From Oasisia sp. SBJ-2009 (Eukaryota; Annelida; Polychaeta; Sabellida; Siboglinidae), in the NCBI GenBank assembly GCA_964017155.1, contig OZ024854.1, forward strand, positions 68,295,254 through 68,359,253: DNA of 64,000 bases, given 5' to 3'. Shown piece after piece: positions 40 to 44,316 of the stretch. Position 1 is the first letter of the stretch; each line of letters opens with the position of its first letter. A model generated the notes under the pieces. That model had not been told where the DNA came from and searched no databases. It saw nothing but the letters and a program-made list of their open reading frames with translations. A program made the position numbers and the translations under genes.

Positions 40-294
40 TAGACACGTCTAAGAAGTTAAGTCCAATATGTTACTTACTCCAGATAACACATACAAGTCC
101 TGGAAGTCCACTTGATAAATTACTCACATCAGTAACAGAAAATTATGTGACGTTTCTCACCCCTAACAATACACTCCACTGACAACACAAACAAGTGTAA
201 GAAGTTACTCACCCCTGACAAGTTGACAACATAGTCATAGACAAGCCCAAAAAGTTACTCATCTTGGCAACACAGTCTAGATCAAGTTACTCAC
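40..294 (-). repeat. Degenerate minisatellite built on the KLHDC8 donor site
   Basis: On the minus strand the exon ends TTGTGTTGTGAGGG and the intron starts GTGAGTAACTT. Diverged copies of this junction recur downstream at roughly 45-50 bp spacing: GTGAGTAACTTCTT near 211, GGGGTGAGAAACG near 165, GTGAGTAATTT near 125 and GTAAGTAAC near 75. Several copies also keep the TTGTGTTGT exon-side sequence. The first copy is the functional donor. The copies are old (many substitutions), unlike other arrays in the window. Confidence 0.6.
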
Positions 295-658
295 CCCTCA
301 CAACACAAGCTAGTCCAAGTAGTTTGTCTTTGAGTGATTCTCCTGCAGACCATTTCTTCTCCTCCACGTTGTAAACTTCCACGACATCGAGCGGCTGCTG
401 ATTGGAGCTGACTCCTCCAATGGCCACCAGCCTCTTTCCCACGGCTGCCACGCTCGGAGCCGCTCGCTTCGTCGGCATGTTGGAGAGTGACTTCCACTGC
501 TCCTTGGCACTGATGTACACCTCCAGACTGTCAATGGGCTGCCCCATGGCGTCACAGCCACCCACCACGTACAGGTTACTGTCCAGTTCCACCGCCGAAC
601 AGAAGACTCGTTTCGTGGGCATGGCCTTGTGTGGCTTCCACTTGTAGTGTGTCGTCAT
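295..658 (-). CDS. KLHDC8: KLHDC8-type Kelch-repeat protein, N-terminal exon (partial)
   Basis: This exon encodes about 121 residues at the start of a Kelch-repeat protein. Two Kelch blades are visible: NLYVVGGCD with a following LEVY and W, and RLVAIGGV with VVEVYN and KKW. The order and spacing match the start of vertebrate KLHDC8A/B (RVYCS, IGGCD, GVxxNQxPLxVVEVYN). Kelch blades build beta-propellers that usually serve in protein-protein interaction; the KLHDC8 family has no known enzyme activity. The exon runs from an acceptor (ctttgcag) at 683 to a GTGAGT donor just after 295. The start is set at the ATG at 658, because MTTHYKWK leads straight into blade 1 and in-frame codons upstream run only to the acceptor. 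The remaining blades lie beyond the left edge. The donor is followed by a degenerate array of donor-like copies (see 40-294). Confidence 0.85.
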
Positions 659-40900: not shown

Positions 40901-43900
40901 TTGTGAGTGTGTTTGATGTAACTGCCTGTGAGTGTGTTTGATGTGACCGTCTGTGAGTGTGTTTGATGTGACCGTCTGTGAGTGTGTTTGATGTGACCGT
41001 CTGTGAGTGTGTTTGATGTGACCGTCTGTGATTGTGTTTGATGTGAGTGTGTCTGTGAGTGTGTTTGATGTGACCGTCTGTGAGTGTGTTTGATGTGACC
41101 GTCTGTGAGTGTGTTTGATGTGACCGTCTGTGAGTGTGTTTGATGTGAGTGTGTCTGTGAGTGTGTTTGATGTGACCGTCTGTGAGTGTGTTTGATGTGA
41201 CCGTCTGTGAGTGTGTTTGATGTGAGTGTGTCTGTGAGTGTGTTTGATGTGACCGTCTGTGAGTGTGTTTGATGTGAGTGTGTCTGTGAGTGTGTTTGAT
41301 GTGACCGTCTGTGAGTGTGTTTGATGTGACCGTCTGTGAGTGTGTTTGATGTGAGTGTGTCTGTGACTGTGTTTGATGTGAGTGTGTTTGTGAGTGTGTT
41401 TGATGTGACCTGTGGTTGTAGGTCACATGGGAGCTGGGTCCAACGCTGCGATCGCAGCCGCAGCGTCTAGGGCCATCGGAGCCACGTTGGAAGTGAGTGG
41501 CCCGCTCTGTCTCGAGTAGCAATGTTACTAAATGTGTATTAAACATTATTTTGTCAGTTGGAATGTTAATTATGTGATTATATGTTGGGAAAAGTTAGCA
41601 AACTGTTTTTGAAATTTCCTGTATTTAAAAAATCTGGCTGGCTGGTTTTAGGGCCAGTCCATGCAAGTCATAGTATTGCGCATATTTTATGCAATTATCC
41701 CAAGGATTGTAAAGTTGTTTATGTGAAGTATCGCCTGAAGTAAGCATTTATGTTAGAGCCAGTCGACAACGCATACAATCAGTGTCTATTTGTGTGTATG
41801 TGTCAGATAGAACAATGTTTAGGCAGTGTTTACTTGTAATAAAATTAGTAGTGACTGTATTTATACATTGAAATCCCAAATAGAACTCTGTTCAGTAGTG
41901 TTGACAATAGTTCGAAATTATACAATAAATATAATAATAGTAAAACATTGATGTGTAGCACTAAGAATTTTATTTACAGAAAACAGAACTAGAGAAATTA
42001 ATCAACGATTGGTGTAAACTGTGCTATGTATCATCAGAATTTAAAACATATAACAACTATAATTTAGATAAATATATATGTGTGTGTGTTTTGTATCATC
42101 AGAATTTAAAACATAACAACTATAATTTAGATAAATATATATATGTGTGTGTGCTATGTATCATCAGAATTTAAAACATATAACAACTATAATTTAGATA
42201 AATATATATATATATATGTGTTATGTATCATCAGAATTTAAAACGTAACAACTACATATTCAATTTATATATATATGTTATGTATCGTCAGAATTTGAAA
42301 CAAAACAACAACTACATATTCAATTTACATAAATAAATATATATATACATAAGTGAGTTACTATCTACTGCTGTGTGTAGATGCAGCAGGGTCGGCGGAC
42401 GGCGAGTCTGAAGGCGAGTTACGAGGCAGTGTCTCGCAGCACGGACCTGGCCAAGGACTTGCAGCTGACGAAGGAGTACAACACCCCCACCACGCCCTCG
42501 GGCAGCGCCCCCGAACCCACCAAGTCTTCCCGCACCAAGAAGTATGACAAACTTGTTATTGTCAACAGCACACAGCTCCACTAATGGCAGATTGTTCTCC
42601 AGTTTGGCAGTGTTATTCTTGTACCACGACGTAGTATGTTATATAATGTAGCAACTCTTGTAGTTATGACTTTTGGGGAAGCCTCTGATAATGTTGGTCT
42701 GGTCAACAGTTGTCTGTGTGTTATGTGATGGTCATGAAACATCAATGTATTACAACAGGTGTTGGTTGACATCACCGTCACCCAACACTAGCCAAGGGAA
42801 TAATGTACTGAATCAGAAAGTTATCATTTTGACAGGTGACTGACTATAAATGAATTGAGCAGAATATCTGCTTAGGAGTTTGCCAGGTGTTTGTAGTCAA
42901 ATGTTTATTCAGACAAATGTATCAATGAATGAAAACTGTTAAGTACCTCAGAAGGCAGAGCTTTACTTGGGTGTTGTGTTGGATGGTCCACTAGCTGTCT
43001 ACACTGGATGACAACTGGTTAAATGATGAAGTAAGTGAAGTGTATATCTATGATCTGAAGACAGTATCAGTCTTGTTCAGTCGTCTCTAATTCTGCTGCG
43101 TTGATCCAGAGCGACAGCCCGAGCCCAGCAGCAACAACAGCAGCAACAACAACAGCCCACACAGCTGCCACCCCCTCTTCCACCGTCGGTCGAGTTGCCG
43201 CCCATTCTACCAGAAGCGGAACTCGTCACAGAGGAAGTCAGTGGCGCCCCCACGTGGCAGTACGATCCAAACGAGCCGCGGTACTGCGTGTGCAACGACG
43301 TGTCGTACGGAGACATGGTCGGCTGTGACAATGAGGACGTAAGTCTGTCGTCTCTCTCTGTCTCTACTGTCTCTGGAGGCTGCATTTGGGTGAAACTGAT
43401 CATGTGTTGTTTTGCAGACGCTGTTGTCAGATTCTAAGTAACCTTCGTTAGATGCTTAGACAACATCATGACTGCTGCTTAGTACTTACTATAGTTGTCA
43501 GTTCAGGATAGTCAAATTTTTCAATAGGTTGTAATGTCAGGACTTACATCGTTTTGTTACGAGTTGGTTAAACAAGGTGTATATTGTTTTGTGTATTACA
43601 TTTGATATCTGTTGTGTTTGGTGTAAGTGTGTTGGTTTAAAAAGTGATAATTATGATTTTTTGAAGTGCAATGTGTTGGTTTTGGAATAAGTTGGTGTCG
43701 AATGTTGTTTGAAACGTGAAACGTGATCTTTTGGTTTGATGTGTTGACATGTAATGTGATGTTTCTGGTGTGTGTACCCCGTATGTAATTAATTTTGTGT
43801 TGACGTCAGCTTGAGTTTGACTCGGAGCATGTTGGTGGAACAGGGTGATGAGATGACTTTGAGCATGTTGGTGATGAGGTGACTTTGAGCGTGTTGGTGA

Positions 43901-44316
43901 TGAGATGACTTGGAGCGTGTTGGTGATGAGATGACTTGGAGCGTGTTGGTGATGAGATGACTTGGAGTGTGTTGGTGATGAGATGACTTGGAGTGAGTTG
44001 GTGATGAGATGACTTGGAGCATGTTGGTGATGATATGACTTGGAGCGTGTTAGTGATGAGATGACTTGGAGCGTGTTGGTGATGAGATGACTTGGAGCGT
44101 GTTGGTGATGAGATGACGTGGAGCGTGTTGGTGATGAGATGACTTGGAGCGTGTTGGTGACGAGATGACTTGGAGCGTGTTGGTGATGCGGTGTGTTTGT
44201 TGCAGTGCCCCATCGAGTGGTTCCACTACGGCTGTGTGGGGTTGAACCAGGCACCCAAGGGCAAGTGGTACTGCCCCCAGTGTACGGCCGCCATGAGACG
44301 CCGTGGACGCAAGTGA
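34903..44316 (+). CDS. ING3: Inhibitor of growth family member 3, complete, 11 exons
   Basis: Chromatin reader subunit of the NuA4/TIP60 histone acetyltransferase complex; its PHD finger binds H3K4me3. Exons: 34903-34930, 35053-35124, 35759-35871, 36293-36358, 36991-37087, 37432-37482, 40146-40340, 41422-41492, 42381-42541, 43110-43338, 44206-44316. Phases agree; 1194 nt, 397 residues (human 418). The N-terminus MLYLEDYLE is ING3-specific and separates it from ING1/2/4/5. The ING dimerisation region runs to about residue 105 (EMREMDLQVQ, YGKALEDADEKVQL, HLRKLDQE, KMELEADNAGITEMLE). A low-complexity linker includes RRTASLKASYEA and about ten Gln. The PHD finger spans about 344-387 with C4HC3 ligands in CVC, GC, CP, FH, GC and YCPQC. 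It is split after GCDNED by an intron holding an array. Polyadenylation hexamer at 45160. Confidence 0.97.
36755..36985. repeat. 25-bp minisatellite before the ING3 exon 5 acceptor
   Basis: About nine copies of TGTAGTGTCCAGCCAGTGAC + TTACC (CCAG/TCAG variants). It ends CCAGTGACTCAGTCTACATG + TGTCAG, the functional acceptor at 36990. Each unit contains CTGTAG and CAG, which resemble 3' splice sites. Confidence 0.9.
37640..37857 (+). mobile_element. Retroposon 3' tail ending in (CTCA)n
   Basis: A tail-like sequence (CCTCGGTAAATATT, then TTTTACCAAATAAA) runs straight into about 20 copies of CTCA (37777-37857). The combination of an AATAAA-like stretch followed by a short tandem tail resembles non-LTR or SINE 3' ends. 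I recall such CTCA tails from mollusc genomes but cannot verify this here. It lies in ING3 intron 6. Confidence 0.45.
38100..38770. other. CpG-rich block inside ING3 intron 6
   Basis: About 670 bp with many CG dinucleotides inside an otherwise AT-rich 2.7-kb intron. It includes two short frames with no recognisable protein match. It could be an internal promoter, an enhancer island or an inserted element. Confidence 0.3.
39057..39215. repeat. (TA)n/(TG)n microsatellite, ING3 intron 6
   Basis: Alternating TGTG and TATA runs with a short non-repeat break (AGGTCCTAC) near 39123-39131. Confidence 0.9.
40855..41412. repeat. 25-bp minisatellite before the ING3 exon 8 acceptor
   Basis: About 22 copies of GTGACCGTCTGTGAGTGTGT + TTGAT, with a GTGAGTGTG variant replacing GTGACCGTC every two to four units. 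The last copy continues GTGACCTGTGGTTGTAG, the acceptor at 41421. Opposite-strand frames (SHQTHSQT repeats) are by-products. Confidence 0.93.
42020..42350. repeat. 60-80-bp tandem repeat before the ING3 exon 9 acceptor
   Basis: Four to five copies of a unit containing TATGTATCATCAGAATTTAA and ACAACTATAATTTAGATAAA, separated by (TA)n/(GT)n of variable length. The array stops about 30 bp before the functional acceptor CTGTGTGTAG at 42380. Copies near the acceptor are more diverged. Confidence 0.85.
43835..44190. repeat. 26-bp minisatellite before the ING3 PHD-exon acceptor
   Basis: About 14 copies of GAGATGACTTGGAGCGTGTT + GGTGAT. The last copy runs into GCGGTGTGTTTGTTGCAG, the acceptor at 44205 of the exon encoding the second half of the PHD finger. 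Reverse-strand frames (SHHQHAPSHLIT repeats) are not genes. Confidence 0.93.

What the first reader, a model, noticed from the sequence alone, without database searches (positions are those of the whole stretch)
40..44205. Tandem-repeat arrays are systematically anchored on exon-intron junctions
In all four intron-containing protein genes, minisatellites lie on the intronic side of a splice junction and usually touch it. Donors: KLHDC8 exon 1; AASS exons 1, 3, 7, 13 and 15; AMT exon 2. Acceptors: AASS exons 2, 6 and 17; ING3 exons 5, 8, 9 and 11. In at least six (KLHDC8, AASS 1, 3, 15 and 17, AMT 2) the unit contains both sides of the junction. Units differ in sequence and length (2 to about 80 bp), so this is not one repeat family that inserted many times. 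It looks like a process that repeatedly seeds tandem duplications at splice sites. From memory, intronic minisatellites tied to gene positions were described in amphioxus (called 'mirages'); I am not certain that the splice-site anchoring was part of that description.
Basis: partly seen in the sequence, partly recalled or inferred. Interest (0 to 1): 0.92.

Follow-up and report, generated by a model that had tools for sequence, protein, structure and literature searches.

The report
Splice-site decoy arrays in tubeworm introns
In a genome close to that of the deep-sea tubeworm Ridgeia, about one in ten of the introns sampled carries a row of repeated copies of its own exon edge and splice site, likely made by small local DNA duplications, so the cell would have to find the right splice site among up to dozens of similar decoys.

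Summary
Two window proteins are 97-98% identical to the vestimentiferan tubeworm Ridgeia piscesae, so this is not amphioxus. Of 58 intronic minisatellites, 38 end within 20 bp of a splice site: 6.4 expected by uniform placement, 15.5 by a generous null that allows duplications across junctions. The 11 other genes pooled give 23 of 39 (4.1 and 10.2). The junction sequence matches the array in 26 arrays, in 19 by exon letters alone. At 26 selected junctions, 332 of 361 inner copies keep GT or AG, and 256 score at least as well as the used site. This matches amphioxus 'mirages', known from single genes (PMC3087553, PMC3902484), now in an annelid and over a gene sample. Breakpoints fall anywhere around the junction, so the splice site is not the cutting point. 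Whether duplications start or survive better there is open. The gene models use the exon-most copy (one ambiguous case), as exon definition predicts; RNA data would test this.

The parts
64..306 (-). KLHDC8 exon 1 donor with degenerate copies of exon end plus donor (exon ends at 295)
   Evidence: sequence; model; 24-bp junction copied 19 of 24; 4 inner copies
9087..9396 (+). AASS exon 1 donor array, 23 bp x 13, 11 bp into the exon (exon ends 9097)
11364..12153 (+). AASS intron 1 interior array, 42 bp x 18.7 (not at a junction)
12169..12964 (+). AASS exon 2 acceptor array, 41 bp x 19.7, ends 1 bp before the exon at 12966; junction probe P 0.01, exon side alone not shown
13870..13937 (+). AASS exon 3 donor array, 27 bp x 2.5, 4 bp into the exon
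   Evidence: exon side not shown, P 0.79
15194..16473 (+). AASS exon 6 acceptor array, ends 14 bp before the exon at 16488; no homology across the junction
17267..17312 (+). AASS exon 7 donor lies in (GT)23
20579..22081 (+). AASS exon 13 donor array, 12 bp x 125, starts 14 bp after the donor; no homology across
22829..23399 (+). AASS exon 15 donor array, 37 bp x 15.4, 3 bp after the donor; junction probe homologous, exon side alone not
24025..24575 (+). AASS exon 17 acceptor array, 20 bp x 27.5, 15 bp into the exon; 26 inner acceptor copies, all with AG
24666..24742 (+).
30295..30412 (-). AMT intron 5 array, 45 bp x 2.6, 12 bp before an acceptor; no homology across
33704..33916 (-). AMT donor array, 35 bp x 6, 23 bp into the exon (exon ends 33894)
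36755..36973 (+). ING3 acceptor array, ends 17 bp before the exon at 36991; no homology across
40860..41410 (+). ING3 acceptor array, ends 11 bp before the exon at 41422; no homology across
42020..42335 (+). ING3 array 45 bp before the exon at 42381; outside the 20-bp class
43844..44188 (+). ING3 acceptor array, ends 17 bp before the exon at 44206; no homology across

Best explanation
In this tubeworm-like genome, intronic minisatellites end at exon-intron junctions far more often than random placement gives, and 19 of the 38 that end within 20 bp of one contain copied exon letters; they most likely begin as a short local tandem duplication that happens to straddle or abut a junction, which would be harmless because the exon-most copy is predicted to remain the splice site in use. 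Inferred: copy number then grows by slippage or unequal exchange into the intron, the only free direction. Inferred: the splicing machinery pairs sites across the exon (exon definition), and so takes the exon-most copy at both donor and acceptor arrays. Not resolved: whether duplications start more often near junctions or survive there longer. I lean to the former, because copies of splice sites should if anything be harmful, and because low-copy, presumably young duplications also cluster at junctions.
For: All genes: 38 of 58, against 6.4 and 15.5; each of 15 leave-one-gene-out repeats keeps the excess (none of 50,000 simulations). The 24-bp junction (12 exon + 12 intron letters) recurs at 18 of 24 or better in the neighbouring intron at 21 of 290 junctions, against a control rate of 0.0002-0.0005 per junction. 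Junction probe homologous to the array in 26 of 46 arrays within 60 bp (12 donor, 14 acceptor), 15 exon letters alone in 19. Inner copies at 26 junctions that I picked: 332 of 361 keep GT or AG, 256 score at or above the used site. In the largest arrays identity to the exon copy does not fall steadily with distance, e.g. 29-30 of 30 letters in all 47 copies of KLHDC8A intron 4. Units that are a multiple of 3: 6 of 26 (P 0.31 against one third), so no sign that inner copies are kept in frame. Units are unrelated between genes. Low-copy duplications near junctions: 16 of 67, 8.0 expected, P 0.003.
Against: The share of junctions covered by arrays is not highest at the junction: it rises from about 5-7% there to 9% (donor side) and 14% (acceptor side) at 40-150 bp, so it is array ends that are anchored, not array mass. 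Of 46 arrays within 60 bp, 20 show no homology across the junction, 14 of them on the acceptor side; in 7 of the other 26 the exon letters alone do not reach P 0.01. Exon overlap in the window genes alone is not in significant excess (5, 2.7 expected, P 0.10), nor is it for low-copy duplications (6, 4.3 expected, P 0.25). Against the generous null the excess is about 2.3-2.5 fold, not 5-6 fold. In shorter arrays the innermost copies are less alike (RUVBL1 intron 9, POLR2B). Three of 15 genes have no near-junction array. The gene models choose the splice site by protein similarity, so they cannot show which copy is used in RNA. No RNA, no second haplotype and no related genome were at hand.
Confidence: 0.72

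Rival explanations
1. Survival, not seeding: tandem duplications arise evenly along the gene, and arrays last longer next to exons because deletions that would remove them are stopped by the exon and splice site.
For: Interior arrays look slightly younger and shorter (median match 94% against 91.5%, 5.6 copies against 7.5). Abutting arrays without homology across the junction fit a spacer lost by deletion (20 of 46).
Against: Low-copy duplications are already in excess near junctions (16 of 67, 8.0 expected, P 0.003). Copies carrying strong decoy splice sites should be disfavoured, not kept (inference).
Confidence: 0.35
2. Splice signals themselves seed the duplications, because splice motifs or pyrimidine tracts supply short direct repeats for slippage.
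For: Acceptor arrays outnumber donor arrays among those within 20 bp (25 to 13). Against shuffles of their own letters, acceptors have a slightly higher 6-mer repeat ratio than intron interiors (2.16 against 1.84).
Against: In raw counts, repeated 6-mer pairs in array-free 80-bp windows are fewer at donors (0.97) and acceptors (1.14) than in intron interiors (1.99), and the donor ratio to shuffles is lower too (1.47). Junction-matching arrays are balanced (12 donor, 14 acceptor), and breakpoints are spread evenly around the junction (KS P 0.20).
Confidence: 0.12
3. The introns themselves were born from these tandem duplications (AG-GT proto-splice duplication), so the arrays are relics of intron gain.
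For: Proposed for amphioxus globins (PMC3087553, passages) and for human tandem-repeat introns (PMC10809524, abstract and passages).
Against: 0 of 58 arrays come within 60 bp of both ends of their intron. The genes have the many-intron structure usual in animals (recalled, not tested).
Confidence: 0.05
4. Chance: introns are short and arrays long, so arrays touch junctions by necessity.
For: Median intron 578 bp; 23% of intron bases lie in minisatellites.
Against: Both nulls keep each array's length and intron and are still exceeded; copied exon bases are not explained by crowding.
Confidence: 0.03

Closest known systems
Amphioxus 'mirage' minisatellites (Adh3, troponin C, globins BflGb6 and BflGb9, PGBD5); PMC3087553 and PMC3902484, passages read
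   Same: Tandem copies that span an exon-intron boundary, on donor and acceptor sides, unit lengths of about 10 to 160 bp, many inner copies with splice signals, protein thought unaffected.
   Different: Another phylum (Annelida). Here measured over 196 introns against null models; up to 63 inner copies at one junction; a second class of arrays abuts the junction without containing it.
Dual-specific splice sites in tandem repeats, such as human UBC (PMC10809524, abstract and passages)
   Same: Splice motifs repeated by a tandem array.
   Different: There, introns lie inside coding repeats and inner sites are used; here the repeats are intronic and, by the gene models, inner sites are not used.
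Intron gain by tandem genomic duplication (PMC4974935, search listing only)
   Same: Tandem duplication that involves splice signals.
   Different: No array spans a whole intron here (0 of 58).

Membership tests
Amphioxus-type mirages | Tandem repeat spans an exon-intron boundary | tested here: met
   junction probe homologous in 26 of 46 arrays within 60 bp, 15 exon letters alone in 19; 21 of 290 junction probes
Amphioxus-type mirages | Both donor and acceptor sides affected | tested here: met
   12 donor, 14 acceptor
Amphioxus-type mirages | Unit length varies from gene to gene, units unrelated | tested here: met
   2 of 1653 unit pairs alike, each within one intron; median copy spacings 16-77 bp
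Amphioxus-type mirages | Inner copies carry AG or GT signals | tested here: met
   332 of 361 at 26 selected junctions
Amphioxus-type mirages | Normal splicing of the mRNA | not testable with these tools
   No RNA held; protein alignments fit use of the exon-most copy (0 gaps at 19 AASS joins)
Amphioxus-type mirages | Length polymorphism, somatic instability | not testable with these tools
   one haplotype, no reads
Intron gain by tandem duplication | Same array at both ends of the intron | tested here: not met
   0 of 58 arrays within 60 bp of both ends
Short-repeat-seeded slippage at splice motifs | More short direct repeats at junctions than inside introns | tested here: inconclusive
   raw counts lower at junctions; ratio to shuffles slightly higher at acceptors, lower at donors

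The most novel reading that the evidence does not exclude
Exon-intron boundaries are hotspots for birth of tandem duplications in this annelid lineage, arising independently of amphioxus, and the spliceosome reads past dozens of perfect decoy sites because it pairs sites across exons: each such intron is a natural decoy-array experiment on how splice sites are chosen.
Probability: 0.38. Interest if true: 0.85.

Novelty: new member of a known kind. Interest (0 to 1): 0.64.

Why it matters
In the papers I could see, splice-site duplication arrays are reported from single amphioxus genes. Finding them in an annelid, with copied exon edges in 10 of 15 sampled genes, suggests a general process that duplicates DNA around exon edges. 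It also turns an old question into a direct test: with up to 63 similar copies of a donor or acceptor in one intron, exon definition predicts use of the exon-most copy on both sides, whereas intron definition, or taking the first acceptor transcribed, predicts inner copies. Ordinary RNA sequencing would decide. Gene annotation in such genomes is also at risk of calling false exons inside the arrays.

Tried and rejected
Amphioxus as the source: rejected by protein identity to Ridgeia. One inserted repeat family: rejected. Intron gain from the arrays: not supported. Short-repeat seeding at splice motifs: raw counts against it, composition-corrected ratio at acceptors slightly for it. A microhomology reading from array length modulo unit length gave no clear pattern and was dropped. 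Interior arrays as relics of hidden splice sites: best donor in the unit no better than shuffled (median 1.7 against 2.2), acceptor a little higher (3.2 against 1.5); not followed. Relatives of the genome: none held. Paper 10.1093/nar/gkf407, recalled as the original mirage report: not held.

The first AASS exon was lengthened by hand to 8878 for the tests; this moves no junction. In KLHDC8A intron 3 the donor is ambiguous, since the model takes one repeat copy as coding; it is still counted among the 58 arrays, the 26 and 19, and the 361 copies. One search was run on 145 introns, before the last five genes and the exon check. In one search, 28 junctions were entered by hand; 2 gave no copies because intron numbers had shifted. 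The unit lengths were typed in.
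Full report
Where the window comes from. An intronless ORF at 55361-57064 (minus strand) is 98% identical to a predicted Ridgeia piscesae protein. The AASS model matches another, 903 of 927 residues identical, with a name of the same series (NP493_154g). The own genome held here has 764 Mb in 33 contigs. 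The Ridgeia draft was estimated at 695 Mb, and its mean intron length is reported as the longest of four tubeworms (PMC9921365, passages). So this is a vestimentiferan tubeworm, Ridgeia or a near relative, not amphioxus. The species is an inference.

Gene models. I wrote a splice-aware protein aligner and guided it with human proteins from memory. AASS: 20 exons, 486 of 893 residues identical. AMT: 7 exons, 220 of 372. Outside the window, guides were located by search and stretches fetched: CLTC 1354 of 1598 residues identical, VCP 685 of 765, ATP5B 417 of 479, and KLHDC8A, next to the window, 138 of 334; EEF2, POLR2B, XPO1; RUVBL1, RUVBL2, TCP1, CCT2, SDHA. After dropping 7 weak terminal exons there are 15 genes on 9 contigs and 196 introns, median 578 bp; 194 donors are GT and 2 GC, all acceptors AG. 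The AASS joins have no gap nearby against the independently predicted Ridgeia protein or the Capitella protein (0 of 19 each; 1 of 19 against one unnamed relative).

Check of the finding. Four of the six claimed two-sided units are supported. For AASS 3 and 15 the exon side is not shown. A clear case at the AASS exon 17 donor was missed.

Minisatellites were taken as TRF period 7 or more and score 100 or more. In AASS, AMT and ING3, 13 of 16 end within 20 bp of a splice site (1.9 expected under uniform placement). In the 11 other genes pooled, KLHDC8A left out, it is 23 of 39 (4.1 expected, Fisher P 1.6e-21). In all, 38 of 58 (6.4 expected), 13 at donors and 25 at acceptors. A duplication that crosses a junction is also harmless to the protein, so I built a more generous null that allows such placements: 23 of 39 against 10.2 and 38 of 58 against 15.5, reached in none of 200,000 simulations. 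Exon overlap alone is 22 against 10.9 (P 1.5e-4), 15 against 7.3 in the independent genes (P 0.0014), and 5 against 2.7 in the window genes (P 0.10). Leaving out any one gene changes nothing. Near-junction arrays occur in 37 of 196 introns and 12 of 15 genes. Microsatellites do not show the effect clearly (3 of 12). Coverage by arrays is not highest at the junction itself (5-7% there against 9% and 14% at 40-150 bp): what is anchored is the array's end.

What is copied. At 21 of 290 junctions a probe of 12 exon and 12 intron letters recurs at 18 of 24 or better in the adjacent intron, against 0.0002-0.0005 per junction when probes meet other genes' introns; AASS intron 16, VCP intron 6 and KLHDC8A introns 3 and 4 have 24 of 24. 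With a shuffled-probe test, the junction sequence is homologous to the array in 26 of 46 arrays within 60 bp (12 donor, 14 acceptor), in 19 by its 15 exon letters alone; those 19 lie in 19 different introns of 10 genes. The other 20 abut without homology, 14 of them upstream of acceptors. In 21 arrays that overlap an exon, the exonic share of the unit averages 0.50 and does not differ from uniform (KS P 0.20): the junction lies anywhere in the unit. This argues against a process that cuts or inserts exactly at the splice site.

Decoys. At 26 junctions picked for having copies I found 361 inner copies (15 of 24 or better); 332 keep GT or AG and 256 score at least as high as the used site on a matrix from these introns. 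Examples: 47 copies in KLHDC8A intron 4, 63 in CLTC intron 2, 39 in VCP intron 6, 31 in SDHA intron 4, 26 in AASS intron 16. In these large arrays identity to the exon copy does not fall steadily with distance; in shorter ones (RUVBL1 intron 9, POLR2B) the innermost copies are lower. Only 6 of 26 units are a multiple of 3, so most inner uses would shift the frame; this fits no, or rare, use. The protein alignments fit the exon-most copy at donor and acceptor arrays alike, with KLHDC8A intron 3 ambiguous; but the models choose sites by protein similarity. Pairing across the exon, with the shortest exon preferred, gives this outcome on both sides; pairing across the shortest intron, or taking the first acceptor transcribed, would not. 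This step is inference; no RNA was available.

Birth or survival. Low-copy duplications, presumably young, are also near junctions more often than expected (16 of 67 against 8.0, P 0.003), though their exon-spanning excess alone is not significant (6 against 4.3). Short direct repeats are not commoner at junctions than inside introns in raw counts; against shuffles of their own letters acceptors are slightly higher (2.16 against 1.84) and donors lower (1.47). Units are unrelated between genes (2 of 1653 pairs, each within one intron), and no array reaches both ends of its intron. I lean to a raised rate of duplication around exon edges, but longer survival next to constrained exons is not excluded.

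Comparison with what is known. Mirages, defined as tandem repeats that span an exon-intron boundary, are described in amphioxus Adh3, troponin C, globin and PGBD5 genes, with mRNA evidence reported that splicing is not disturbed in the Adh3 and globin cases (PMC3087553 and PMC3902484, passages). What I see has the defining features that could be tested. New here are the phylum, the frequency over a gene sample with null models, the size of the decoy arrays, and a class of arrays that abut without containing the junction. Searches for such arrays in annelids or siboglinids (4 of 4 rows listed, 12 of 443) and for splice-junction minisatellites in general (20 of 64, 15 of 18, 5 of 5) showed me, by title and start of abstract, no other report apart from the amphioxus papers. 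The library is open-licence only and the lists were partly cut, so this is weak evidence of absence.

Noticed in passing
window 55361-57064 (-): Intronless Egalitarian/EXD1-like ORF (PF23713), 98% identical to a Ridgeia piscesae predicted protein; no junctions, so it could not be tested.
   Followed up: partly
window 51938-52827 and 62997-64000: Large homogeneous arrays (37 bp x 24, 99% match; 18 bp x 56) between or beyond the modelled genes; whether they lie in introns of unseen genes or UTRs is unknown.
   Followed up: no
window 22829-23399: The AASS intron 15 unit starts with a donor-like GGTACT and ends with an acceptor-like TTTCTAG, so each unit border resembles the AG-GT of recursive or dual-specific splice sites.
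   Followed up: no
L009-L011 plus window 1-1500, KLHDC8A intron 3: The donor of KLHDC8A exon 3 is ambiguous: the model takes one repeat copy as coding in another frame, a possible early step of exon lengthening by an array.
   Followed up: partly
L014-L017, POLR2B intron 13; L002-L005, CLTC intron 17 (numbering): Very large intronic arrays: 207 copies of 32 bp (6.6 kb, interior) and 126 copies of 40 bp (5.1 kb, ending 9 bp from the acceptor).
   Followed up: no
POLR2B intron 8 (L014-L017) and RUVBL1 intron 5 (L021-L022): Two-copy repeats with nearly the same 32-bp unit (AACATTCAACAC...GGGGGCGCTTA), probably a dispersed element unrelated to the junction arrays.
   Followed up: no
20 of 46 arrays within 60 bp of a junction: Arrays that stop 6-53 bp from the splice site without containing it are mostly upstream of acceptors (14 of 20); no explanation was tested.
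   Followed up: partly
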